The notes below the pieces were generated by a model. That model made no database searches and had not been told where the DNA came from. It worked only from the letters and a program-made list of their open reading frames with translations. DNA of 64,000 nt, taken from positions 4,845,001 through 4,909,000 of the forward strand of contig CALZFC010000017.1 in assembly GCA_945643635.1 (NCBI GenBank), read 5' to 3'. Below are positions 24,197-63,900 of this stretch, in pieces (position 1 is the first letter of the stretch; every line of letters starts with the position of its first letter). The translations under genes were made by a program, and so were the position numbers. This DNA comes from Allodiplogaster sudhausi. Its lineage: Eukaryota; Nematoda; Chromadorea; Rhabditida; Diplogasteridae.

Positions 24197-25659
24197 TCAT
24201 ATCAGCAAAAGAGGAACATCAATTTTATGACGCGGAAAGGAGCCCGCGACATTGCAGGCATCCCTTGCATTCTTCTACAAGCATTAAAAACTAATATATT
24301 CCCGTAAAAACACGCGAATTCAAACTAGAATTTTCAGCTTATACCAACAATGTTTTACTCCTTACATCGTTCGCCTTCGCCGGGTAGACGAGAATGGTAA
24401 TTTTCTCCGGCTTTCTCGAGGGCGCGATACGTTTCACCTGCGAGAATGCAAGCCCTTGAGAGATAGATTTGGAGAGAGTATAGAGAGAGAGAGTGAGAGA
24501 GAGAAAGAGAGCGAGGAGAGAGCAGAGGGAGCAGGGAAGGTGTTGGAGTTTGACCTTACAGTTGACGGGCTGGCCGGCAGGCAGCAGATGGTAGACGGGG
24601 AAGACCTGGAAGGACGCGTTGTTCGAGCAGCGCACCTTCAGCGCCATGACTTCTGACGAATTGTTCGTGACCTCAGAAATGTTTTATAACCACGGGAAAA
24701 ATTATGTAAGATTTCAAATTGCCGCTGTCCTTCGCACTCTTATGCGCCCTTGCCATTTTAAGCCAGCGGGTTGTGCCCCTCCTAAATGAGAGAACGCGGC
24801 AAATTTGAGCCCGAATTAATTTTTGTGATCGTCCTCCTTTAAATGCTTTATTTTATAATTTTACACTTTTTAAATTAATTCTCTTTACCGATATTTTGCT
24901 AACAGTTCCAGAATAAGTTGTGAACTTTGCAATTTTCCTTGTTTGTTTCATCTTTTTGTGCTTGAGGAAAACGAATGCGTTAACTATTAAAATAGGAAAC
25001 TCAACACCAATCTTTTCGATTGTTGCAGTCGTATCTCTCCAAATGACATGCATGCTCTCTATCCCTGGTCATGCAAAAGGGCGCGGATTCCAAGAGTGAG
25101 TTTTTGGGGTGAATTGTCCTTTAACGCGTCTTCCACATCTTCCAGATATACCACTCGAGTCCGTCTTTTTGATTTGTCTCGCCATTTCCTTTTCCCTCCT
25201 CTTCTCTCGTCCGAACCTTGACCATGTGGTTAGTCACTTCGGCGCCTGACGGCCAGCTCAGCTGCGTCGGCTCGACCGTCGCGGTCGCGACTGCCTGAAT
25301 ACAATATTTTGTTTCCCTTTTAAACTTTTATTATAGCAAAATTTATGTCTTTCTTTCTATATAATAAACCGATGACAAAGCACATAAAAGCCCAAAAGAA
25401 GCTGTCATTCTCTGTATCGATAATGTCCCACACTTTGCTCCAGGCACCCCTGGCAGTCGGTCAAGGTCCTTCCACGCACCCTCTGGACGACGGAGATGTT
25501 GCCGATGAAGGTGGCAGCCGACATGGGGGGCGGCGAGCAGTCTTCCGAAGAGCCCTCATCCATCAGGGTGGGAATGGTCGAGATGCCATCGCTGACCGGC
25601 TCGGCCTTCTTCGTCTTCGCCACCGACTTGTCCGCCGGCTTTGCCGTCGGCGGCACCAT
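24197..25659 (-). CDS. MSP-domain protein
   Basis: Exons (minus): 25480-25659, 25238-25294, 24555-24671, 24366-24437, 24197-24274; all junctions phase 0, 167 aa. Residues 1-60 are a low-complexity Lys/Pro/Ser-rich leader (MVPPTAKPADKSVAKTKKAE). The major-sperm-protein beta-sandwich follows: VEPTQLSWPSGAE, then VTNNSSEVMALKVRCSNN, then FQVFPVYHLLPAGQPV, then PEKITILVYPAKAND, ending in KIDVPLLLI. Known MSP-domain proteins are sperm cytoskeletal or signalling proteins, or VAP-like adaptors that bind FFAT motifs; which applies here cannot be told. The leader makes it longer than a classic MSP (about 127 aa). The intron before exon 4 is largely a CT tract that serves as its polypyrimidine tract. 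The last exon is the least certain. Confidence 0.8.
24993..25125. repeat. dispersed repeat family A, copy in MSP-gene intron
   Basis: GGAAACTCAAC, TCTCTCCAAATGACATGCA, CATGCAAAAGGGCGCG and a TTTTTGGGG tail match, in order, parts of the copies at 7952-8060 and 51139-51250. It lies in the intron between exons 2 and 3 of the MSP-domain gene. Confidence 0.55.
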
Positions 25660-27551: not shown

Positions 27552-27783
27552 TCATATGGTGCCAATGTTCTTGAGATTTCGCTGCATAATAAGGTCAACG
27601 CAAGATTTGAAGACCTGAAAGAAAGTATTCAGTCACTTATCCCCTTTACTTCACTTTCTTTTCACAACGTTTCTTCCCATTCTTATTTTCACAATGTCTC
27701 TCTCAACTCTCATCCCTCGCTCTCTCACTGTTTCACACTCTCAATCTCACTCTCTCTCTATCTCTCGCACTCTTACTCACTCA

Positions 27784-27838
<55 letters not shown>

Positions 27839-30389
27839 CATCCACATTGTCCGTGTCTGTTGCTGTCGTCATGTGCACGTAGAGCTGTCCCTCACTCTTC
27901 CCTCCGGCATTCGTCCGGTCTACGAGCAACTTGAATCGGTCGGCAATGTAGGCGGCGGACGCGTCGGCGCTGGCGCCAGCTAAAGTCTTCTGACTTCTCT
28001 CGTTCTCTAACTCTCTCTCACTCTCTCATTCTCTCATGCCTCTTAAATTGTTTTTTTTTTAATTTTGGAAAAAAAATTGTTCACAACGTAGTGAAAAAAA
28101 TAATGAAATACCGTTATATCTTCTGAAGCACGACGTGAGTGGCGATTGTTCAATCTTGGCGCGGAAGAGGTCAAACTTAAAAATTTTTTTTGAGGCTTTT
28201 CGAATGCACCACGTTTTATTTTTATTTAATAAATTAACAAATAAATCAAAAATACCCTGAGGATAGAGATGAAAAAAGAAAAGGAATAAATGAACCTTGT
28301 TCAAGAAGAGAATGAGCGCCATATGCCGCGTGAAGGCGGGATGACGAGCGACGCTGCGGAAGATGGCCATCGCGTACTTTAGACGATTCCATGGCTTGAC
28401 GCCGGTCGGAGGTGGAGAGTGGCATTCGCCCGGCGGCACTTCGATGTTTCTGCAAGGGTCACTCAATCAGCAGAGAGAGAGAGAGAGAGAGAGAGACGGG
28501 CAGAGAGGAGAGAGAAAGGAAGAGAGAGAGGGAAAGAGAGAGCGGTAGAGAAAGCAAGAATGAGAGGAGGAGAGACCACCAAATTTTTTTCATTTTGTAA
28601 GCGAACGAAGTTGTGTGTGATGTTTATAGTATTTGCAGAAAGGTACATTTTATGTTTGGCCCGGATGAGAATATAGGGGTAAAATGTCATTTTGGGTTTG
28701 GTCCGGATGAGAACCTTGCGGGAAGATGTCGTCATCAGCAGTGTGAGTGTATAATATAATACTCAGATTGTAATTCGTATATTACCACGAATGTGGAAGA
28801 TTTTGAAGTGAACATTTTAAGACTTTTTTAAACAAAGAAATTCATAGCAATGCTTGAACGAACACATCCAAACATGCTCGGTCGTTTAAACCTTTCGGCT
28901 AACTCGCTCGCGTCGATCCACTGGTTGTAGCTGCTCACGTCGACGATGAAGAGTACGCTGCTGACGTCGTCGAAGCAGTGCAGCCATTTCCGCCGCTGCG
29001 AACGCTGCCCGCCGATATCAATCATCCTGATGGTTCATCAAGGATGAATTGATTAGTTCGGATATTAACTTGTTGCTCATTGCAATTCGATGCAAATATA
29101 CTTCAGAAAGCTCATCGTACAATATTATATGCAACCGTTCTCCTCTGTGAACATTCAAACTCTAGTGTTGACTATCTTTTTGTTGGTAGAGTAGTGTAAA
29201 TATAAGCAAGGAAAAGACTCCGACGAAAGTACCCTGCCCCACCTCATCTCCATGTCGTTGAACGGAAACTTGATCTCGATGATGCCGGTGGTGGCGCTCC
29301 TCGCGCGCAGGATGTCCTCATTTGTCGGCAGGAACGTCGGATCCGTCACGCGCTCCAGGTCGTCGAGGAAGCTGTTGGGCATAGGATTTTGATTGCATTG
29401 ATTAGGGCCAGCTGTGGAATCGAACTCGGGCACCCCGAATGGTGCCGCTGACGGCATACCACTCGGCTATCCCAACCCCCGGTGGTGGGAAACGAACTAT
29501 TCAGCCGAGTCGAGGAGCGGGAAGTCGGTGCAATGCGAGAGCGTCAATGCCGCTGCGTCCGACATGTAGATGCGTCGGATCGGCTCGGTCAGGGTCGTGA
29601 CAATGTCCGAGTCGGTGTTGTGCGGGCCTTGTGACTCGAGCGCCGACTCGAAGTGTCTGATCGCGGCCTTGAAATGGCGGGCGCATTTTGATGTTTCTAT
29701 TTAATTTGCATAAATTCGTTGTATATATTTAAATACAAACATCATGCAAGTAATGAATGCACAAGTAGATGATTAGTTTTATTATAAATATACATACATA
29801 TGTACAAAATTGTAGGATATTATAGCATGCGTAAGCGCCCGTATTGTTCGAAGATCTCTTATGTAATCCCATATTCGCTTTTATCTTGTTGCATCATCGC
29901 TTTACGGATTTGCTCTTGATGGACTTTCGCGCGTGTTTCTTTCTCTGTCTAGTGAGTGTTGTTTTGAAAAATACGGTATAACATAGTTGACAAGTACCTA
30001 TATAGCCGTCAGGCGCATGAATATTTATAAATATGCTCTTTACAATTCACAAACAGATTATTTTAATTTGATTTTTTTTTAAAATTTATGTAGCATACTT
30101 CAAAAGGCAACATAAATTCAACGAATTTCGGGATTTTTGAATGCATGATTAAAGGGCAAAGAAAGCAAACACATAAGAAGATGTAAATTTTAAAAACAAT
30201 TGGTTTTTTTCTTCATTTTTGGTTTTTTTCCTATTACATATGCACACTGATTTAGACTATTCTAGAACATATTATTATCAAACTCTGAATTGACAATTTT
30301 CATATCGCCACATGAAATGGCAAACGGTGGATTATTCTTACATTAGTCCCAGAAATTTTTTTTACTGACATCGTTTTATATATACATAC

Positions 30390-30432
<43 letters not shown>

Positions 30433-31352
30433 GATTTCAGTAAAAAATAACAAATACCTCGGTTTGTTCCTCGATGGGTACTTCTAATAAACGTGCTCCA
30501 GCAATAATCTGCTGCGTTGCTTGCAAGACATTCGCGTAGATAATAAACCGAAAGTTGACCAGGTCGTACTTGTTGAAGCCGGACTTGTGCAAAATCCTGA
30601 ATTAACTCATATAATATAATATATTATATATAATAGTGCACTATATCCCACAAAAGGCTACCTAAAAACATCCAGCAACTAATCATGCTCCACTAACTTC
30701 ATCTGCTTGAACACAGTGCTCTTGCCGGATTCGGGGCCTCCTACAATTTTGCGATCCGTTTTTGTTGTTGTTGAAAAAAACTCTTTTTTGAAAACAGAGT
30801 TAAAAAGGGATTATTGAAGAATCTTTACAACACCAGTGAAATAAAAATAGCTTCAGATTATATAATCTCAAAGTTGTGCAAAAGGATGTTATTGAGAGAA
30901 ATGAAGCAGCAGTAAAAAAAACCTCTTAAAAGTATAAGGATTTATGTATAGTACATATATCTAAGCTTCTTACCTAGCAGCAGAATCTTCATCTCTTTCT
31001 TGCGCCTCGCCCTCTCTCGTTCGATCTCACTCTCGATGGTCGCATTGCGAATGTTGACAACGACGCTATCCGACATGTGGGAGTTCTGATGAAATAAGCG
31101 ATTTCATTTTGTTGTCCTCCGCGCGAGAATTTTTATCATTCAAAGAAACAATGGCTACTTTTGATCACTAATTAGTTTTTAAAAAGTTTTTTTTTGTTTC
31201 TGTTACAAATTATTTAAAAAAAACTACACATTTATTTCAAAATAAAAGGAAACCCTCGCGTCGAAGCTGCAGCAAGCCATTCGAGCGAGTCCGTTGGATT
31301 TCTTGCTTTCGCGAACGACTTCTACAGTAAGGATGTCAGCCCCTGTCCGCAT
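27552..31352 (-). CDS. heterotrimeric G-protein alpha subunit, gene 1
   Basis: Exons (minus): 31254-31352, 30974-31085, 30698-30740, 30458-30596, 29498-29667, 29243-29371, 28904-29026, 28296-28449, 28112-28175, 27837-27979, 27552-27614; every phase agrees, 412 aa (388 from the inner MACC). Motifs in order: MACC palmitoylation motif as in Gq, P-loop [21 protein letters not shown], switch I RARSATTGI with the catalytic Arg, switch [14 protein letters not shown] with the catalytic Gln, FLNKFD guanine specificity, HMTTATDT, and C-terminus LKNIGTI. Residue 2 of the P-loop variable part is Pro where Ras has Gly12. The C-terminus lacks the Cys needed for pertussis-toxin modification. An in-frame ATG 24 codons before MACC follows a pyrimidine-AG site and is taken as the start. 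It should act at the plasma membrane under a GPCR; which one is unknown. Confidence 0.92.
29410..29480 (-). repeat. tRNA-derived SINE-like sequence inside a G-alpha intron
   Basis: The 126-base intron between exons 5 and 6 is mostly a tRNA-like sequence on the sense (minus) strand: A box TAGCCGAGTGG and B box GAGTTCGATTCC about 50 bases apart. The first resembles tRNA-Ser/Leu class II. Stems do not close properly, so it is probably a tRNA-derived element rather than a working tRNA. Confidence 0.6.
30396..30430. repeat. (TA)n microsatellite in G-alpha gene 1 intron
   Basis: About 17 TA units in the fourth intron, close to the 3' end of that intron's complement (the splice donor lies at 30457). 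Likely length-polymorphic. Confidence 0.85.
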
Positions 31353-32452
31353 GGGACGACTGGCTGAAATGGAGCAAAAATGCGATGTTTACACGAGTAT
31401 ATTGTAGTTGTAAAAAATCTTTTAAACTAACATGATGCTTTTTTCGTCGATTAACGGAGCTCCGTGGATCAATATTGACAAACTTTTAAAAGAATCAATC
31501 GGTCCAAGGTGGTTTGGTGCAGCTGACAGCCATGGACCTGATAAAGCGAGCATATTTATGTATATATATCGAAAAAAAATGAATAGCTTGAGCGCAAGGA
31601 GATGTTTCACTCTCTCTAATCGTAGGCCAGTGAACTTTGCAGGACTTACCAAGCGGCAAAAGAAATAGAAGAAGCAATGAATGAATGTTGTGGAAGAGGC
31701 CTTCTTTTCCATTGGTCTTGTATTATGAAAGCCGACGACGCTTGGCTGAGTATCATTCAATTGATGAAGGATGAATAGAATGCGGGGTTGATGGTATTGA
31801 CGATGTTTACGCTTTTCTTTATCTCTCTCCCAAAGGGGATTAACAACGTTGAGAGCGTTGGGCAGGAGAGTTTGAGAATTAGAGATAACAAAGAAGAGTC
31901 GAGAAGAGCGGGATAAATGGTTCTAGAGTGAGATAAAGTGAAAGAAACTATAATGGCATGTCTCATTTTTGGTAGGGTCGTCGTCACTGATGTGTAATAT
32001 GTATTACGTTTTCTACGATGTACGAAGGAAGACTTGCTCACTCTATGTTTTGGCAATTCTTTACACATCAAACAAAACGTAATACATGGATAATACTAAT
32101 CCCTCTATTTCTCTCTCATTTCGCTTATCATCAGATTAATCAATACCAAAGCGCGATATCCGTCAATGACGAAATTACATTTTCGAATAGCATACAATTC
32201 CGTGGACTAGTCTAGACACTACATATTCTATGAGATTTTGACTAAGCTACATAGAAAAGCATAAGAAGTCTTGATGATATTTTACATAGTGCTCTTGTAC
32301 ACAGCAGATCAGAAGAATACTTGAAACAGAATATATACCAATGTTTCAAGTAACGCAATCATTGACAACAGCATTAGATGCACAGTTTCCTGCTTGAAGA
32401 AAGATCAATAGCAATTAATGGAAGCAAAAGAGGTACTGTTTCAGCAATATAA
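31353..32452. other. intergenic upstream of G-alpha gene 1
   Basis: Promoter side of G-alpha gene 1. Open frames here (31422-31760 minus, 31757-32071 minus) have no bias or motif. No clear promoter element is visible. Confidence 0.4.
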
Positions 32453-32967
32453 CTAAAGAACGCGTGCAATGGAGCGAGTATCAAAACTAGATTCTTTCTT
32501 GAGCTGGGCGGAGACGCTTCGAGAGAGCAGCGACCAACACACGGAGAGCGCGATCTCACTCAGTGGAGCTATGCCCCTCAGGCGCATCTGGAAAGGGGAG
32601 GAATTGGACGATGATGTCACAAAAGTATGTATACTATGTGATACATTCGCAACGAACTGATGTCGAGTAATGTAATAAAGATAATATATCATTTCATGTT
32701 TCCAACAAAATAAAAAAAAGATATTTCTGCAAAGACAAATAAAGCATGGCCTGCCTGATATAAAATGCTGTCGCTAACGAAGAAGACGCGCCCTCCTGGA
32801 GCGACCTCTCGGTAGAACCTCATCCACGTTGGGTTGTTGTTTAGACGCGCAGTCTTGACGTCATCGGCGCCATTGCACTCCACTCTGAACAGTTCCATGC
32901 GGTGCGCCGTCGTCAAGAACACCTTGAGCTTGAAGTGGTGCGCGTCGCTCGAACTAATCCGCATCAT
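32453..32967 (-). CDS. small unrecognised gene between the two G-alpha genes
   Basis: Two exons (minus) 32779-32967 and 32453-32587, phase 0, 107 aa. Exon 1 has strong GC bias at third positions and reads HHFKLKVFLTTAHRMELFRV, then NNNPTWMRFYREVAPGGRVFF, like a compact beta-rich domain. The second exon is basic and Ser-rich. The first ATG follows GCGCCGCAG, which could be a splice acceptor, so upstream exons are possible. The donor (GTTAGC) is chosen for phase; reading through to SDSILYQ with a GC donor is the alternative. No family is recognised. It lies between two tandem G-alpha genes on the same strand. Confidence 0.45.
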
Positions 32968-33045
32968 TCGCTGCGGCGCCGCGCCCCCGAAAGACGAGAG
33001 GTGGTAATGTCATCGACAGCAGAGGTCATAAATGTCCAAACATTT

Positions 33046-33160
33046 TGGGCCGGCCCCGCGTCTCATGCCCAAGGACTCGGCCCGGCCGGCATAGACCATT
33101 TCCATACCTAGCATTATGAGTACGGCCCGGGGAAGGCCGGCCGGACCTACAGGCAGGGGC
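33046..33160. repeat. GGGCCGG/CCGGCC-rich block
   Basis: Repeated words GGGCCGGCC, GGCCCGGCCGGC and GGCCGGCCGG in an otherwise AT-rich region. A smaller relative lies at 11513-11575, and a CCGGGCCGAAGGCCCGG hairpin at about 56590-56608. It may be a short inverted-repeat element or a GC-rich regulatory patch. Confidence 0.4.
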
Positions 33161-33292
33161 GTTACAAGTTTGTCGGCAGGCTACTTTTTACGCCAGATTA
33201 GACTGATATGTGCACGCTTTAACTATTATAGAATTCTGCAAACAAGTAAAAACAAGGAATGACAGAGTAATTCAAAGTTCCATGATCACAGA

Positions 33293-36228
33293 TCACTGAG
33301 CGCCCATCGCTTGCATTTTACGTTGTAGAATGACGTCGACGCAAGAAGAGAAAACCTGTGAAAATTTTTTTAAAGATTTTTTTAAATAGCAAATTGGTGT
33401 TTCAAATGATTTATTGGCACAAAAAAAAACTTTAAAAATGAGCGTGTAACAGATACCAAGTTTTCATGGATAATTTATAGAAAAAAGAAGATGATTAAAA
33501 CTGACCATATTAACAGCCTCCGTATCCGTCGCCGTCGTCATGTGCATGTAGAGCTGGGTGGTGTCCTCCTCTTCGACCTGCGGCTTTGCTGGATCTCTTC
33601 TGCCTCCGCTCTGCCCTGTCGCTCCCTCTCCTTCTTCTCCTCCTCTCGTCCGCCTCTTCCGCTCCACCAGCTGCCGGAAGCGTTCCGCGATATAAGCGGC
33701 GGCCGCTTCTCCGCCAGGCGGGCCTCAAAATTCACGCAGTACAAAAGGACGCTGTTAATTTTTTTAAAGCTTCCGATCCATTTTTTACGTATTTTTTTTT
33801 ATAAATATTAATTTATCATCTGAAATTTTTTTAATGGTCAGTCACTAACCGAAAAGCTGGGTTCCAAATGAGGGATGTGAGGGAGTTTTTCACATTGTTT
33901 CGGAAACGCCAATATTCACATTAGACATTGAAAGATTTCAAATTGCTCTATATACGAGTAAATATCAGGAATCTTATAAAACCTTCATGATAACTATAGT
34001 AGTGTGTGTGTCAGTATAAAATGTATGCAGGTGCGGTTCATTTTGCAACCATGTTACTTTTCATCTACAAGTGCAGATGAAAAGCAAAATCATGTTTATT
34101 TCATCACAATTAGAATTTCAGAATCATAGATTCGCGCCATCCTACAGTTCAGTAGTGCAATATCGTGTTGTCCACTCGAGACTATTGCGCGGTTGAAATA
34201 GTCATGCCCAATATCAGGTAATACTATAGTCTTCATTCCCCATATGATTGAACAAAAGAAGGAATGCATTATATTTTCCATAACAAAATGAAAATCTGAA
34301 AGAGAGAAGAGTGAAAGGGAAAGAAGAAGTGCTTACCGTCATATCTCCGGAAGTGCTTGGCGAGGGGAACAGCGTCGATCTTGGCACGGAAGAGATCAAT
34401 CTAAGATAGTTTTATTAACTGTGTTTATCGCTTGCTAAATACAAAATAAAATAATATAATAACAGCAAAAAGTAAAAGGGATATTTATTTCAGTGAATTG
34501 ATGTTTTTCTCCACACCCGCAATGACGCAATTTATATGATGTAACCATAAAGAGACAAAAGAGGAGTAAAATCGAGCACTGTTTACAAATCTTGTTTTTG
34601 TAGCTGACCTTGTTGAGGAAGAGAATGAGCGCGATTCGTTGCTTGAACGCGGGATGGCGCGCGATGCTACGGAAGATGGCCATCGAGTGCTTCAGACGAT
34701 TCCACGAGGACGAAGTGGCATTCGGCTGCAGCGAGGCCGCTTCAACTTGCCTTAAAAACGCACGTTTGAATTCGCGCCCTTTTGCCTGACACAAAGGCTA
34801 GTGAGCATATCATTAGAAAGACACGACTACAACGGTCAGGAAATTTCAGATAGATTGCGGTTGAGTTTCATGCACCTTAAAGGCAGTGAGATATTCATTC
34901 TTTGCATTATCATCACTGGATACGAACTCCCGTGCGTTTATGGCCATTTCATTGTCCAACTCCAAACAAGGAATCGTCAGTAAATCGAGCGTGCATTTGT
35001 GGCTTTTCGAGAAAAGAGAGGGCTTCGAAAAAAATTCTCATCTTACTCGTTCGCATCAATCCGTTGGTTGTAGCTGCTCACGTCGACGATAAAAAGCACG
35101 CTGTTGACGTCGTCGAAGCAGTGCAGCCACTTGCGCCGCTGCGACCTCTGCCCACCAACGTCGATCATTCTAAGGATATACAAAGTCAATATTATCGATT
35201 CGTTTGAAGTATTGATTGGTTTTGTGTTTTCAAAATTACATGTATTTGTGCAGAGTTAATGTTAATAATAAATTTGGGTAAAAAAATTTTTAAGTTCATA
35301 AAAATTATAACTAAAATGCGCCGTCTAGATACATACATACCTCATGATCGTGCCTCTGAACGCGAATTCAATCTCGATGATGCCGGCGGTCATGTTCCGC
35401 GACCGTAGAATGTCCTCGTTCGACGGCATGAACGCGGGGTCGGCGATGCGCTCGAGGTTGTCGAGAAAGCTTAAATTTACATACATATATGTATTTATTT
35501 TTGAAAATTTAAGAGTTATATTTTTTTACACAAAACAAAAATAAATTGATGGAAACATATGTAAATATAAAATTAGATAATTCATTAAAATATTGAATGT
35601 TAATTTGTTAATACTAATTATTATTATTATTATTATTGTTAAAAAAGAATTTTAATTATACAAAAATACATAAAAATAAAACTGACTACTCTGCCGAGTC
35701 GAGGAGGGCAATGCTGGCGCGTCTCGCGATCGCCTGCCTTACCGCGTCAGAAGCGTAGATGACGCGGATCGAGAAGACGAGCGCGTCCGACAGCTCCGTC
35801 TCGTTGCTGCCTTCCGAGGTCAGCATCGCGAAGCGAGCGGCTGCCGACTTTAAAAAGAACATTTACGAAATACTATTTCAATGTTATTAAAAAAAATAAT
35901 TAATGTACATATAGCTTCCTTTTTTTCTCTCGAAATACTCAGAAATGCAGCACATACGTTTGTATTGTTCGTTAAACCTAATTATTATTTTCAACACCTC
36001 GGTATCCTTGTCAAGGAAAAGTTGGAGATGGCGAGCGCCCTCAAGCAGTTGCCGTGTCGCCTTGACAATGTTCTCGTAGATGATGTAGCGATAGTTGATG
36101 ATGTCATACTTCGAGAAGCCGGATTTGTGCAGAATCCTTCAGGATGGATCCTTCTATGCTTTCTCTCTCTCTCTCTCACTCACTCTCTCGCTCTTTCTCT
36201 CTCCATCTCTCTCTATTGCTTTCTCTCT

Positions 36229-36266
<38 letters not shown>

Positions 36267-36814
36267 GCGCATTCTAACCTCATTTGTTTAAAAACCGTAC
36301 TCTTTCCCGATTCTGGTCCACCTGAAAATAAGATAACAGCTAATTCAACGTCTAAGTACCGCGTTATGTTGGTGCTTTCTGAAAACAGTAACTGTTTACA
36401 GTTATAAGTTTCGTCATACAGTACCCAGAATGAGTATCTTGAGATGTTTCTTTCGCTCGTCTCGCTCTCGTTCCAAGTCTGCATCGATGGTGGATGGCTG
36501 CTGGTAGACAGCACTGACGCGGGACGACGAACTTCTCTGTCATGACGTCATTATTATTATTATTGTTATTGTATTTTATGTAATTTAATTATGTGCATCT
36601 GTATATACATACATATGAACTGAGATTATATGTATAGATACATCTCTAAAATAACAAAAAATTCCAAAATATAGATTTTAGTATATGAAATATGTACATA
36701 CATACAGACATATATACGTCAGTGGAATAAATGTTTTGTGATGATTCTGCTGCGTTCTTTAAAAAAAAACTTTAAAAAAAAAGAAACCATGGCACGAAAA
36801 CTGCAGCAGAGCAT
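33293..36814 (-). CDS. heterotrimeric G-protein alpha subunit, gene 2
   Basis: Exons (minus): 36788-36814, 36425-36536, 36279-36321, 35998-36136, 35687-35847, 35341-35469, 35047-35169, 34609-34750, 34337-34400, 33506-33723, 33293-33355; phases agree, 406 aa from MLCC. Exon boundaries are those of gene 1, and seven of eleven exon lengths are identical, so the two are tandem paralogs. Motifs: MLCC, P-loop GGPESGKST, switch [10 protein letters not shown] (TTG changed to TAG), switch [29 protein letters not shown]-terminus MQAMGAQ. Exon 10 carries about 25 extra charged residues ([19 protein letters not shown] onwards) before [12 protein letters not shown]. The frame stays open upstream of MLCC for about 30 codons (LDKNETEQQQIHATETRQVE) without ATG, so a further 5' exon may supply an N-terminal extension like gene 1's. 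Confidence 0.9.
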
Positions 36815-58109: not shown

Positions 58110-60868
58110 TGGAGAGAGATAGAAAGAAAAGAGAAAGCAAAAGAGTTATAAGAGATAGAGTAATGATCGGAGACTTGTTCCTTGTTGTATGTTATATTTG
58201 TTACAGAGATTACGAGACAAGCCGCGATGCTCTAATGAGTGAATCGCAATGGCTGACTCCCTTCACAATCTCGGCGATGGAGAAGCTCAAGAACGAAGTT
58301 AGAAATATTTTTTATTTTGATTTTTTTAAAGACTAAATTTCTATTTATATTTGCTACATGTTTATTTCTTTTTTATTCCAGAAAAAGTTTATTAAAGGAA
58401 CTATCCATGGAGTTTGAAAGCCGCTTGTGCAGAACTAACGTTTGAATTCGCGCAAGATATTGTAAAAAGTTTTGGCGGTATGCTAGCACAGTATCCATCA
58501 CTACAAACTAGACTTTGTGAGCCTTTTTCTCTCTGCCTCTCTTCTCTTCCCTCGAATCTCAAGCATGGCTTTCCGCTTCGCACCTAGTTTTCACCTTCTT
58601 TCTGGTAGAATGAGGGAGTGCATGCGGACAAAATAGGCAAGGGGTGATGACGTCACTCCCTAAATTCTACAGTACGGCGTATGGAAAATGTGGTTTTTCT
58701 CCTCAGGGCCCCTTCAGGACGCATTCTCACTTTTCCCAATGATGTTTCTAGTTGGACCGGATAGTATTAACAAAAAATTCAGTAACATTGTAATCTCCAT
58801 GGACAGCTCCTTTAAAATTAATGATTTCTCAATGTTCCGTGTCGTTTTACCCTTGCATGGTAAATATTTTTTTTGATTCTTCGATTAACTATTTTTTTGC
58901 ATTTAGCGGAAACGCTCACAACGTTCTCTGTTCCTGGTCGTCCAGATGCCGACAGTCTCTTTGAACGGCTCCATGTACGACATTCTCTTCTGCGAGCGGG
59001 AACTCACAGTGGTTATTTCTTTTTTTTCTTATTTATTCATATATTGTCATCAAAATTAATTGATGTGACGACATATTTTTTTTTATTTAAAAAAGTAACT
59101 TCATTGATATAGAGTGGTAAGTGGAAGATTTAAAAATGACTTATTTATTCTTAAAGTTAAATATTCGCTGTTTCTTCGTGAAGACATTTTGTATATAGTA
59201 CTTGTCAGTTTTTTATAGGCTATTCCAAATGTATGTATTATTTCAAGAATAATCATGCTGGTAGCCACTGTTGCCCATCGCTGTGTTTGTTCCAATTGGT
59301 GCGCAGGCACGTATTTCCCCCCTCGCGTTCCGGAACCTGTTTTTGACTTAACTTACCTCGCTGTTCATAGTAGGTTTAAGGCCACGGGAAAGTGGAGTGT
59401 GTGTGTGAGAGTGAGAGAGAGAGAGAGAGAGATACTGAAAGGAGAGGATGACGAGTGAGGAGAGCAAGAGGGAGAGAGAAATAGGGAGCGAAGAAGAAAA
59501 TCAGGATTGTTTTGAAAATGAGAAAGAAGAGAATACCGACTGATAGTAATAGCCTAGTTTGGACTACATTTAATCTTGCGACAATAGTTATGGCCAGCTT
59601 ATGCTTCATCGTTTTACCTCCTTGCTTTATTGTATTTCACCACTATTTTCGTTTAGGTTTTTGAAATCTGTTAGCGCGACCTATTTCAAATGATTATTTG
59701 ACAAAATAGAAATTACAGATGCAGCTCCTTTTAATAGTCATGCCTTTACTCGTCATTCGAATCATTGGACGACCATTACCTGAAGAGTACTGGAAGCTGG
59801 CTTTCGCGTTGGGAGTTGAGCGAGGGCGAAATTTATTCAAAATTTAACATTAAAAATGGGGCTGATTACTCCTTTTCTAATATTTAAATGATTATGATTA
59901 AGAACAGTATATTTAATTCTTCTAGAAGTAAGGTAAAAAAAAAATTAAAATGACTAGGCAATATTTTTGTGGGAAAATATTTTTTCTTCTTATAATTAAA
60001 AGATGAGAGGAAGAATTAGGTTAAAGAATTGCTTATTAAGTTAAATAAATAAATTCCTTTTAATGGAAAAAAGCTTGCAGATGGCGGCGCGTCGCTGGTC
60101 ATGCGTGGGCGCGGACGGCGACCCCGAACTGGGCATGGACAACCCATGCGAGCAGATGCACCACAACATGGCAAGGAACACGCGCAGCAATGAACTCGTC
60201 AAGACACTCAAGCCAAGCAAGCAGGCCAGGGCAGAGCTGGAGGCCATCCTCAAGGTGGGGAGAATGAGAGGAGAGAGAGAGAGAGAGTTAGAGGAGAGAG
60301 AAAGAGAGTTATGAGATGAGCCCTTCCACTAAAGTCATGGTTTTTTACGAAGACAAAAAGCGGTATTTCTACCCATATCAAAACTAGGAGTTACAATAGA
60401 GAAAGCATAACAAAGAGACACTTCGCATTCTTCAGCAACCGCCTTCACGCGAATTGTTGACATCACAACGAGATCTCATATGGAAGTTCCGCTACTTCCT
60501 CCGCAAGGATCGCAACGCACTCAGCAAGTTTCTCCGCTCTGTCAACTGGGAGGCGCCCATTGAAGTGGCACAGGCAGTACAGCTTATTGAGTAAGGGTTA
60601 ATGTTTATAGTCAGATACATATCAATTGCTTATTTAGCGTAATTTACATTGCGTACTTGAAAGTATGCTTACAATAAGCAACATTCTTTTCCTCTTCTCA
60701 TTCCCTCTCGCTCTTTCCCTTACTCTCTTTCTTTCTCTACTTTCTCTTGCAAATCTCTTTCCTCTCTATTTCTTCTTCTCTTTCTCTCTCTCTCTCTTCC
60801 TCTCTATTTCTTCTCTCTCGTTCTCTTCCTCTCTCTCTCGTCTGTCTCTCTTGTCTCTCTCTCGTCTC

Positions 60869-60909
<41 letters not shown>

Positions 60910-63900
60910 CAGTGAATGGGCCCCGATGCATCCGGAGGACTCGCTGGAGCTGCTGTCGGAGGACTTCCGCCATCCCGCAGTTCGTAGCTACGCCGTTTCT
61001 CGTCTCCTCTCCGCGTCCCCCGACCGTCTCCAACTCTTCTTGCCACAACTCGTACAGGTTTAGATGGCGGAGCGGAATGTAACGGAATACTTCCTGATCT
61101 TTTGTTTTTTTCTTTCTTAACATTTAAAATATTTAAGATTTGTATCCTTATTGAAGCGCTTGATGGAAAATATTTTTAAATGTAAAACGAAGTGATGTTA
61201 AAATATAATATTTTTTTCCAGGCTCTGAAGTACGAACTCTCAGATGCTGTAACGGTCGACTTTGATACGGCGGTTCGTTATTCTCAAGTTGTTTCCATTT
61301 TTTTCCTACGTAAATCCAGCTCTAATAGAGCTGCTCTATCTACAATTCTCTCAGGCCGTTGAGACGTCAACTCCAGATGGTTCTCCAGAGCTAGTTGAAG
61401 TGAAGGAGTCGAGAAAGGTGGGACATTTTTTATTGTTCGTTATTCTGTAAACAAAATTGTTAGTATTTGTAAGTAAGTGTCCACATTTTGTTTTGCGACA
61501 ATTACACGCTTGAAAATTTGACCGAGAAGTATTTCAAGGAAGAAAATCACAGGTTATTGTCACGAGAGTCACATGAATGTTAACATTCGTTAACATTTGA
61601 ATTTGTAGTCTGTTGTGCTAATAGAGCATGAGGAATTAATACTTATTAAATACGACCTCGAAACGAGCATGTGTGGCTAATTATTTTTTTTTATAATTTG
61701 AGAATGTTATTTATTCTATCTAACCACAATATTAATAATATCGTTGTATTTTCTTTATAAAGGATTTAATACTGCGTATATTTGATTCGAGGATATTTTT
61801 GCTTTTATCAGAACACTGACGACTTGGCGTCCTTCTTGATCCAGTATGCCACCAGCTACCTCAACTTTGCCAATTGTCTATTCTGGCATCTGAGGGTTGA
61901 GGAACAGTCGTCGGTCAAGGAGGAGTATAAGGAGGTGCGCCAGCCAGAGTTTGGAATAAGGAGAGAGAGAGAGAGAGGGTAGAGAGAGAAAGAGAGAAGG
62001 AAGAGAGAGCGTGAGAGAGAGACACAGAGAAAGGACAGAGACAACGAAATCCTAGAGATTTAAGGTAGAAAAAGAGAAGGGAGAGATGGATGGAAGTGAT
62101 AGGGAAAGGTAGTAGTAGCAACATTGAGAAGCGAAAGCATTTTTCCCTACAGAATTGATGTCTTTTCTTTTTTTAAATGAACTGACTTTCTAAGATTGAC
62201 TAAAGTAATTAAGCAAACTTGTCTGAGATGCTCACTAGGAAATCATCTCTACGTAGTAAGTTGGAGAATTTTGATTTCACCTGTCCAGATCGATTGGTAC
62301 TTTCCAAAAAAATAATGTTGCCTATTTTAATTTTTTTTTTGTTGCGCCAATGGATTTGGACAGGCGATTTCAAAATAATCCTTGAACTGACATTTGGATT
62401 CGTTCCCTTGCCAGATGTACAAGCAGCTCCGTCGCCATCTGATCTCGGCACTGGAGACGGCGCCGTCCCCAGACGCGCAACTCAGGGCGAGAAGCTTGGC
62501 AGAACAGGAGGTTGGCATTCAGAGAAAGAATAGAAAACAACAGATTCTTTTTTACAGATGCCGACTGTGGTCATTATCATCATTTTATAGACATTGTAAA
62601 AAATAATATTATTTATCTTTTTAAATCAATTTTACTGTTGTAAACATTGATGAAAAGAGTGTGGACTGTTCAATTAACATTTGTCTAAAACATATTGTCA
62701 TGAAGTTGAGCAGCGTAGAAGCTCAAGAATAGCCAAATATCTACGGGCGCAGATTCAAAATATCCCGTATTTATTACGGTATAATCATTTGGTACTTGGC
62801 TCCTTTAAAGGAGTTTGTCGCGCAGCTGAAGAAGATGACGAAAGCTGCGAAGGCAGTGGCGGGCGGGCGAGCGCAGCGAGAGCAAGCACTCAGGGAGCTG
62901 TTGGCAAAGAACCAAAAACTGGCCAAGATGGACGGGCTTATCCTGCCGATCGATCCGACATTTAGGTTTCTTTTTCATCTACCTATATCTTTTTTTTTCT
63001 CTTAAAAATCACGGTTCTATTTATAATCATGATGAAATTTAGTTAGTATAGAATTTAAAGGTAAAATAATGCACTCATTTATGTATATTGTGAAGGAAGG
63101 ATGTGTAATTAAAGCATATTATTGCAGAATGTCACAAATTGTGCCAGAAAGGGCGACCTTCTTCAGCAGTGCAATGATGCCCGCGCGTCTGTCATTCAAG
63201 GTTTTTTTTTTATTTTTTTATTTTTAGAAATGAAAATATTATTTATAAGATCTTTTTTTTAGCCTGTATTCTGTTGATTTACAAAAGAGAAGTAGCAGGT
63301 AATGTCATGTTAGATAATGATCAGTTGATCATTTGTTGATTGAATTCATTAAATTTTAAATTTATATATATTTTTTTCTTCTTCAGGGAATTCGGAGCGG
63401 CGAGCGGGAGGTGATCAATGATGTGTACACTGTCATTTTCAAGGAGGGCGATGACCTCAGGTCTTTTTTAAACATTTTTAATGTTCTCTATCCTATTTGT
63501 CATTCTTTAAATTTTATTTATTTTAAAATTTCTGTATTGTTAACTAAAGTGCGTAATTGGTTTTTTTTAAATACAAGTCAATTTCATTTCAGGCAAGACC
63601 AACTCGTAATGCAAATGATTCGACTTATGGATAACATTTTGCGTGAGAATCAAATGGATTTAAGGTTCTTCTATTGCTTTTCTCGTCGCTTTACCGCTAG
63701 TTTCTATTGTGACATTGAATTAGTATTTTTTGAAGTGTAAAATTGTTTGTAAAGGTTGAATGTCAAAACGAAATATTGGTTTCATTTTTTTTTAAACGTT
63801 TAAAATTTGTTTTAAATTTTTGCAACAACAAAAAGTAGTAAAAACAAGAAGTATATTTCTCATTTTAACAGAATGACACCGTACGCCGTAATGGCAACGG

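What the first reader, a model, noticed from the sequence alone, without database searches (positions are those of the whole stretch)
30698..36321. Both tandem G-alpha subunits carry proline at the Ras-Gly12 position of the P-loop
Seen: the P-loop in both genes reads GGPESGKST, where conventional G-alpha subunits read GAGESGKST or GTGESGKST. The third residue corresponds to Ras Gly12 (G-alpha Gly42). Known: most substitutions there block GTP hydrolysis, but in Ras proline is the exception that keeps or raises it. Inference: the substitution predates the duplication of the two genes and may give G-alpha subunits with altered intrinsic GTPase or RGS sensitivity. The catalytic Arg of switch I and Gln of switch II are intact in both, which argues against simple decay.
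Basis: partly seen in the sequence, partly recalled or inferred. Interest (0 to 1): 0.75.

Follow-up and report, generated by a model that had tools for sequence, protein, structure and literature searches.

The report
GPA-11 G-alphas with rewired GTP switch
Two neighbouring nematode genes encode signalling switches (G-alpha proteins) of the GPA-11 type, and this type carries a proline in its nucleotide-binding loop and has lost part of the latch that normally fixes the switched-on shape, so it may switch in an unusual way.

Summary
Two tandem minus-strand G-alpha genes (A, 31280-27552; B, 36814-33293) each carry a 43-base P-loop exon that splices to [10 protein letters not shown]: proline at Ras-12/Galpha-i1-42. 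Arg178 and Gln204 are intact. The proline is not peculiar to this genome. It marks the GPA-11 group of nematode G-alphas, C. elegans GPA-11 included: Pro in 24 of 28 relatives, Ser in 4, Gly in none; none of 170 other listed G-alphas has Pro there. The two genes join that group (100/100), so the substitution predates their duplication. New here: the group has also lost the switch II-alpha3 latch. Glu245 is Tyr in 25 of 25 readable rows (window: Tyr/His) and Arg208 is Gln in 28 of 28 (window keeps Arg), against 169 of 169 Glu and Arg in the others aligned. Residues 208 and 245 correspond to GNAO1-encephalopathy hot spots. Best reading: a hydrolysis-competent G-alpha class with an altered activated state, probably poor RGS contact and poor Gbeta-gamma release; untested. 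Gene A has a non-GT donor at intron 5 and may be impaired. I found no paper that discusses the proline.

The parts
33293..36814 (-). Gene B: 11-exon G-alpha gene (405 aa), GPA-11-like. Exons 36814-36788, 36536-36425, 36321-36279, 36136-35998, 35847-35690, 35469-35341, 35169-35047, 34750-34609, 34400-34337, 33723-33506, 33355-33293
   Evidence: open spliced frame; 10 of 10 introns GT-AG; Pfam G-alpha PF00503 E 1.2e-91. Exon 1 rests on A/B similarity only
27552..31280 (-). Gene A: 11-exon G-alpha gene (387 aa if spliced like B). Exons 31280-31254, 31085-30974, 30740-30698, 30596-30458, 29667-29501, 29371-29243, 29026-28904, 28449-28296, 28175-28112, 27979-27837, 27614-27552
   Evidence: a first model had exon 1 one base short and was out of frame; Pfam G-alpha E 1.5e-90; intron 5 donor is AT, not GT
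30698..30740 (-). Gene A P-loop exon, 43 bases: (G)[13 protein letters not shown](K), Pro at position 42
36279..36321 (-). Gene B P-loop exon, 43 bases: (G)[13 protein letters not shown](R), Pro at position 42
29243..29371 (-). Gene A switch I exon (LRARSATTG; Arg178 and Thr181 kept)
35341..35469 (-). Gene B switch I exon (LRSRNMTAG; Arg178 and Thr181 kept, position 182 Ala)
28904..29026 (-). Gene A switch II exon ([12 protein letters not shown]; Gln204 and Arg208 kept)
35047..35169 (-). Gene B switch II exon ([12 protein letters not shown]; Gln204 and Arg208 kept)
28296..28449 (-). Gene A alpha-3 exon (NRLKYAM): Tyr in place of Glu245
34609..34750 (-). Gene B alpha-3 exon (NRLKHSM): His in place of Glu245
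29372..29500 (-). Gene A intron 5: AT at the donor, AG acceptor, 129 bases, two in-frame stops if retained; holds a tRNA-like stretch

Best explanation
Shown: genes A and B are tandem duplicates of a GPA-11-type nematode G-alpha, and the P-loop proline is an inherited hallmark of that group. Shown by comparison: the group has a remodelled switch, with Gly42 to Pro (4 of 28 Ser) and Glu245 to Tyr/His, plus Arg208 to Gln in the 28 relatives examined outside the window, while the catalytic set (Lys46, Ser47, Arg178, Thr181, Gln204) is kept. Inferred mechanism: the protein still binds and hydrolyses GTP with its own Arg finger and Gln, but without the Arg208-Glu245 latch, and with a rigid Pro facing switches I and III, it does not lock into the usual activated shape. 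It therefore probably exchanges nucleotide readily, is poorly sensed by RGS proteins and releases Gbeta-gamma weakly. It would act as a modulatory brake or buffer on stronger G-alphas in the same sensory neurons rather than as a classic on-switch.
For: Tree: A+B 100/99 and 100/100, on one side of a 100/100 branch with the GPA-11 rows. P-loop tallies. Joint states at 42/43/204/208/245: PEQQY 17, PGQQY 5, PAQQY 1, SEQQY 1, SGQQY 1, plus 3 rows unread at 245, of 28; window PEQRY and PEQRH; others GEQRE 166 of 169. [quoted passage not shown] the Gly-Arg-Glu triad has been tied to Gbeta-gamma dissociation and E245A affects both Galpha-i1 and Galpha-q (PMC13355190 passages). Position 42: Galpha(G42R) hydrolyses normally but cannot reach the active state or bind RGS, and Galpha-i1(G42R) holds Gbeta-gamma in both nucleotide states tested; residue 42 lies near 178, 180, 204, 236 and 245 (PMC3285607 passages). 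Ras G12P keeps hydrolysis but not GAP binding. C. elegans GPA-11 is modulatory in ASH downstream of serotonin (PMC8045692 passage).
Against: No biochemistry of GPA-11 was found, and none of the 60 best of 364 PDB matches shown is named as GPA-11. The human latch mutants reduce hydrolysis, so 'hydrolysis kept' is a guess that rests on G42R, K180P and Ras G12P. Evidence on Gbeta-gamma is mixed: in cells Galpha-o R209C bound Gbeta-gamma less than wild type and only E246K bound it more (PMC9544338). The window genes keep Arg208, so their latch is only half lost. Ser at 42 in three Pristionchus and one Cylicocyclus protein shows Pro is not obligatory. All changes may go back to one stem, so their co-occurrence may be one event and proves no functional coupling; the clustering test is weak (6 of 7 changed sites against 30 of 70 unchanged conserved sites in switch regions, p=0.046).
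Confidence: 0.4

Rival explanations
1. Slow timer: substitution at 42 together with the lost latch lowers hydrolysis, so GPA-11 stays GTP-loaded for long, as vertebrate Gz is thought to do (recalled: Gz is a slow GTPase). It would give long-lasting modulation.
For: Mammalian Gz in our list has GTSNSGKS, Ser at 42 (P0055), and 4 of 28 GPA-11 rows also have Ser at 42; Galpha-i1 G42V is GTPase-deficient (PMC3285607 passages); Galpha-o R209C and E246K hydrolyse 50-100 times slower.
Against: Proline is the one residue at Ras 12 that is not activating; G42R also spares hydrolysis; Arg178 and Gln204 are kept in 28 of 28 GPA-11 rows.
Confidence: 0.25
2. Tolerated change: Pro42 and the altered 208/245 pair are compensated within the protein, and GPA-11 is an ordinary heterotrimeric G-alpha with normal exchange, activation and RGS control.
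For: The AlphaFold model of C. elegans GPA-11 (pLDDT 87.4) matches Gi/Gt folds closely; the catalytic residues are kept; Tyr245 is uniform in 25 of 25 readable rows, as expected of a settled replacement contact.
Against: Positions 42, 208 and 245 are nearly or wholly invariant in 169 other G-alphas, and mutations at them in Gi/Go disturb activation.
Confidence: 0.25
3. Decay: gene A is becoming or has become a pseudogene, so its P-loop says nothing about function.
For: AT instead of GT at the intron-5 donor; read-through gives two in-frame stops.
Against: The other nine donors are GT, all ten acceptors AG, and the frame is open over 387 codons; A-B dN 0.32 against dS 1.25 (NG86; the YN00 estimate failed); A's end branch is no longer than B's (0.36/0.43 and 0.51/0.61). 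It could be an assembly error or a rare donor. It cannot explain gene B or the rest of the group.
Confidence: 0.07
4. Splicing artefact: the true mRNA joins other exons and has a canonical P-loop.
For: No transcript data were available here.
Against: No other P-loop-like exon seen in the window; 24 of 28 GPA-11 proteins from other genomes have Pro at the same place.
Confidence: 0.02

Closest known systems
C. elegans GPA-11 (P0008) and nematode orthologues
   Same: GGP[EC] P-loop, Tyr131 (25 of 27 readable rows), Asn231, Tyr at 245, intact Arg178 and Gln204; joined by a 100/100 branch
   Different: Window genes keep Arg208 and have Gln207, TTAT instead of TNAT, C-termini NIGTI/AMGAQ instead of EKVGFM-type, long branches, and occur as a tandem pair
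Galpha-i1 G42R / G42V mutants (PMC3285607; PDB 1as0 and 1as2 are G42V)
   Same: Same P-loop position substituted
   Different: Engineered Arg/Val, not Pro, in a protein that has Arg208 and Glu245
Galpha-o R209/E246 encephalopathy mutants (PMC9544338) and Galpha-i1 R208Q (PDB 6m8h)
   Same: Same latch residues; R208Q is exactly the residue natural in 28 of 28 GPA-11 relatives
   Different: Disease or engineered changes in a Gly42 background; the window genes themselves keep Arg208
H-Ras G12P (PMC6662853)
   Same: Pro at the equivalent position, hydrolysis retained
   Different: A small GTPase whose Arg finger comes from GAP; G-alpha carries its own (recalled)
Vertebrate Gz (P0055)
   Same: A natural non-Gly at position 42
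   Different: Ser42 and Asn43, with Arg208 and Glu245 kept

Membership tests
Heterotrimeric G-protein alpha subunit (PF00503) | Full-length profile match | tested here: met
   A E 1.5e-90, B E 1.2e-91, profile 3-333 of 333
Heterotrimeric G-protein alpha subunit (PF00503) | Catalytic and nucleotide residues Lys46, Ser47, Arg178, Thr181, Gln204, NKxD | tested here: met
   both genes
Heterotrimeric G-protein alpha subunit (PF00503) | Gly at P-loop position 42 | tested here: not met
   Pro in both genes; 167 of 169 other G-alphas have Gly. A conserved trait, not a criterion for membership
GPA-11 orthology group | Placement with the group in a tree | tested here: met
   100/100 in two trees of 40 and 45 rows, midpoint-rooted for drawing only; whether the pair is sister to the other GPA-11 rows or nested (beside Pristionchus 88/98) is unsettled
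GPA-11 orthology group | Non-Gly (Pro or Ser) at position 42 | tested here: met
   Pro; group 24 Pro and 4 Ser of 28
GPA-11 orthology group | Loss of Glu245 | tested here: met
   A Tyr, B His; group Tyr 25 of 25 readable rows
GPA-11 orthology group | Gln at 208 | tested here: not met
   A and B Arg; group Gln 28 of 28
GPA-11 orthology group | TNAT motif and EKVGF-like C-terminus | tested here: not met
   TTAT, NIGTI/AMGAQ; hence called GPA-11-like, divergent
GPA-11 orthology group | Expression in ASH/ADL sensory neurons | not testable with these tools
   reported for C. elegans only (PMC9249223 and PMC1550261 passages)

The most novel reading that the evidence does not exclude
GPA-11 proteins are a natural, conserved class of 'non-releasing' G-alphas: they load and hydrolyse GTP but, through Pro42 and the loss of the Arg208-Glu245 latch, never adopt the classic activated state. 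They are blind to RGS and hold Gbeta-gamma and receptors, working as built-in dominant-negative buffers in nematode nociceptive neurons. That would be the natural counterpart of the G42R and GNAO1 mutants.
Probability: 0.2. Interest if true: 0.82.

Novelty: new variant of a known kind. Interest (0 to 1): 0.58.

Why it matters
Positions 42, 208 and 245 are nearly or wholly invariant in the 169 other G-alphas compared, and changing 208 or 245 in human Galpha-o causes encephalopathy. A widespread nematode group of G-alphas that has lived with such changes shows either that the switch can be rebuilt another way or that a G-alpha can be useful without the standard activated state. C. elegans GPA-11 makes this directly testable with existing assays, and its compensating residues could inform work on GNAO1 variants.

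Tried and rejected
A read-through of the genomic stretch 34986-36321 as a PDB query gave nothing, because introns break it; spliced models were used instead. The idea that the proline is peculiar to this genome was rejected. A second acceptor for gene A's P-loop exon was not pursued, because its junction gives the same reading as gene B and the relatives. Whether Pro42 and the latch loss arose together or in order could not be settled: the window pair branches among unresolved lines; it sits beside Pristionchus (88/98, long branches flagged), so Arg208 in the window may be ancestral or a reversal. Clustering of changed sites in the switches is only weakly significant. A tRNA-like stretch in gene A intron 5 was looked for elsewhere in the window and found once only, not recognised as tRNA by ARAGORN or Rfam and not unusually stable. 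The organism was not identified; no listed match exceeds 50% identity to gene B, and the whole-genome tool was unreachable. Papers bearing on GPA-11: one search listed 12, of which I read passages of four (the held text has no 'gpa-11'); one search listed five, of which I had opened one (PMC8045692). Knight et al. 2021 is not held and is known here only through papers citing it.
Full report
What is there. A motif scan of all six frames finds two P-loops of the G-alpha type in the window, both GGPESGKS, both on the minus strand; a looser scan adds no other candidate with a KQM after it (2 of 40 places). From the sequence I built two 11-exon genes. Gene B runs 36814 to 33293 and encodes 405 residues; all ten introns are GT-AG. 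Gene A runs 31280 to 27552 and encodes 387 residues if spliced like B; nine of ten donors are GT. Both proteins match the whole Pfam G-alpha profile (A 1.5e-90, B 1.2e-91) and are 54% identical to each other over 411 aligned columns. The P-loop exon is 43 bases long in both, and the codon of the first P-loop glycine is split by the upstream intron, so the reading [10 protein letters not shown] depends on that junction; the acceptor, the donor and the agreement with relatives leave little doubt about it.

Position. In an alignment of the two proteins with 28 GPA-11 relatives and 169 other G-alphas, numbered by a 354-residue lamprey Gi alpha-1-like protein, the proline falls on position 42, the Ras Gly12 equivalent. 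The exon pair at 30698-30740 and 36279-36321 fits the given coordinates exactly.

Not peculiar to this genome. The 18 best-scoring relatives of gene B are nematode proteins, among them C. elegans GPA-11; the top one, a double-domain Plectus protein (P0001), is not of the GPA-11 type and has GPGESGKS. A profile search brought more. I counted 28 as GPA-11-type by their rank, names and similarity (P0002-P0018, P0121-P0130, P0136; three are fragments or damaged models at 245), before looking at all loops but after seeing those of P0002-P0018. Of these 28, 24 have Pro at 42 ([24 protein letters not shown] or GGPASGKS), 4 have Ser (three Pristionchus, one Cylicocyclus), none has Gly; of 170 other listed G-alphas none has Pro at 42, and two have Ser, a mammalian Gz and an Owenia protein. 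In one search the loop regex returned no key for one of the 28 (P0129, whose residues before the loop differ); the same call prints its loop as GGPESGKS, and one search counts it as Pro. A third search aimed at the P-loop region gave 8 matches of 42 candidates; six have GGPESGKS, three of them new fragments of other nematodes (P0199-P0201, not placed in a tree), and the two others have GPGESGKS and GAGGSGKS. The 170 are top hits of searches seeded with GPA-11-like proteins (120 listed of 5056 and of 2205), not a fair sample of all G-alphas, and I did not check that Gs and G12 are represented. No Trichinella or other enoplean GPA-11 appeared in the lists; Trichinella came up with a GPA-7-named protein (P0138).

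Phylogeny. A tree of 40 rows puts A and B together (100/99) and with the 16 GPA-11 rows on one side of a 100/100 branch; a second tree of 45 rows, with 26 GPA-11 rows and 17 others, agrees (100/100). Where the pair attaches is not settled: among unresolved lines, beside Pristionchus with 88/98 and a long-branch warning. The window also encodes a major-sperm-protein domain, which fits a nematode, but I did not identify the species.

The wider remodelling. Looking for positions that are at least 93% conserved in other G-alphas and lost in GPA-11 gave seven: 42, 131, 208, 219, 231, 236, 245. Two matter most. Glu245, present in 169 of 169 others, is Tyr in all 25 GPA-11 rows readable there (3 are gaps), Tyr in gene A and His in gene B. 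Arg208, also 169 of 169, is Gln in 28 of 28 GPA-11 rows but Arg in both window genes. These two residues form the salt bridge that fastens switch II to helix alpha-3 in the activated state; the equivalent Galpha-o residues Arg209 and Glu246 are disease hot spots, and the mutants R209C and E246K take up GTP faster, hydrolyse it about 50 and 100 times more slowly and lose RGS19 (PMC9544338, passages). The Gly-Arg-Glu triad has been tied to Gbeta-gamma release, and E245A affects both Galpha-i1 and Galpha-q (PMC13355190, passages). Galpha-i1 R208Q, a residue natural in GPA-11, exists as a crystal structure (6m8h) and is the fourth match of an AlphaFold model of C. elegans GPA-11 (pLDDT 87.4); that rank reflects fold and sequence and is no proof of shared behaviour. 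Six of the seven changed sites lie in the P-loop, switches or start of alpha-3, against 30 of 70 unchanged conserved sites (Fisher p=0.046): suggestive only. In the window genes Glu207 is also Gln, which the 28 relatives do not share.

What position 42 does. In Galpha(G42R), hydrolysis is normal but the activated state is not reached and RGS does not bind, and Galpha-i1(G42R) keeps Gbeta-gamma; Arg42 displaces residues 178 and 180, would clash with 234 and 236, and in one rotamer contacts 245 (PMC3285607, passages). G42V is GTPase-deficient (same source). In Ras, Pro is the one residue at 12 that is not activating (same source), and H-Ras G12P keeps intrinsic hydrolysis but is said not to bind GAP (PMC6662853, passages). 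So the replaced sites 236 and 245 are neighbours of residue 42, which suggests one remodelled pocket rather than a lone substitution. The alignment at 236 is next to a gap and less sure.

Mechanism. I infer a G-alpha that still hydrolyses GTP but does not lock into the classic activated state. That fits a modulatory role: C. elegans GPA-11 acts in ASH downstream of serotonin (PMC8045692, passage), and its promoter drives expression in ADL and ASH (PMC9249223 and PMC1550261, passages). The steps from sequence to altered kinetics are inference. The main rivals are a slow, Gz-like timer and a harmless, compensated change.

Against the reading. The window genes keep Arg208, so their latch is half lost; Ser42 in four relatives shows that Pro is not needed; and because the changes may date from one stem, their company is not independent evidence of coupling. 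In the human mutants the lost latch lowers hydrolysis, which would favour the slow-timer rival. Weak Gbeta-gamma release is also not a sure consequence: Galpha-o R209C bound Gbeta-gamma less than wild type, and only E246K bound it more (PMC9544338).

Gene A. The donor after exon 5 reads AT; intron 5 is 129 bases and has two in-frame stops if retained. The rest of gene A is open, and dN/dS between the copies is about 0.25 (0.32/1.25, NG86, 379 codons; the YN00 estimate failed), so any loss is recent, or the base is an assembly error, or the donor is a rare one.

Print record. No paper in the library holds the string GGPESGKS. Two papers hold both 'gpa-11' and 'proline'; the word concerns isp-1 in one and a HIF hydroxylase in the other. 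A search for nematode G-alpha evolution and P-loop listed five papers, of which I checked one by passages and found no discussion (PMC6316442); a G-alpha evolution study left out the divergent C. elegans subunits (PMC2954821, passages). The library lacks most subscription journals: O'Halloran et al. 2006 on the nematode-specific clade was seen only in a reference list and may mention it.

Noticed in passing
window 29395-29490 (-): tRNA-like stretch with A-box- and B-box-like motifs (recalled consensus) inside gene A intron 5, next to the odd AT donor; one copy in the window, not called by ARAGORN or Rfam. Possibly a SINE-type insertion.
   Followed up: partly
window 60641-63740 (+): Exons of a phosphoinositide 3-kinase catalytic subunit: PIK accessory domain E 2.4e-15; kinase domain E 6.2e-06, just under its Pfam cut-off.
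   Followed up: no
window 24345-24683 (-): Major sperm protein domain, E 2.8e-06, which fits a nematode.
   Followed up: no
P0015, P0124, P0126-P0128 (strongylid GPA-11; P0126 unnamed): Glu43, which in Gi faces switch I (recalled), is Gly here: loop GGPGSGKST; P0125 (Cylicocyclus) has GGSGSGKST.
   Followed up: partly
P0001 (Plectus sambesii, 672 aa), P0088, P0117, P0197, P0202: GPGESGKS loops: Pro one residue earlier, at position 41, in other G-alphas; P0001 has two G-alpha domains in one predicted protein.
   Followed up: no
P0144 (Owenia fusiformis): G-alpha-like protein with GASDSGKS, Ser at position 42 outside nematodes and Gz.
   Followed up: no
window 35341-35469 (-): Gene B has Ala at position 182 (Thr in gene A), an RGS contact in Gi (recalled); 2 of 28 GPA-11 rows also have Ala.
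   Followed up: no
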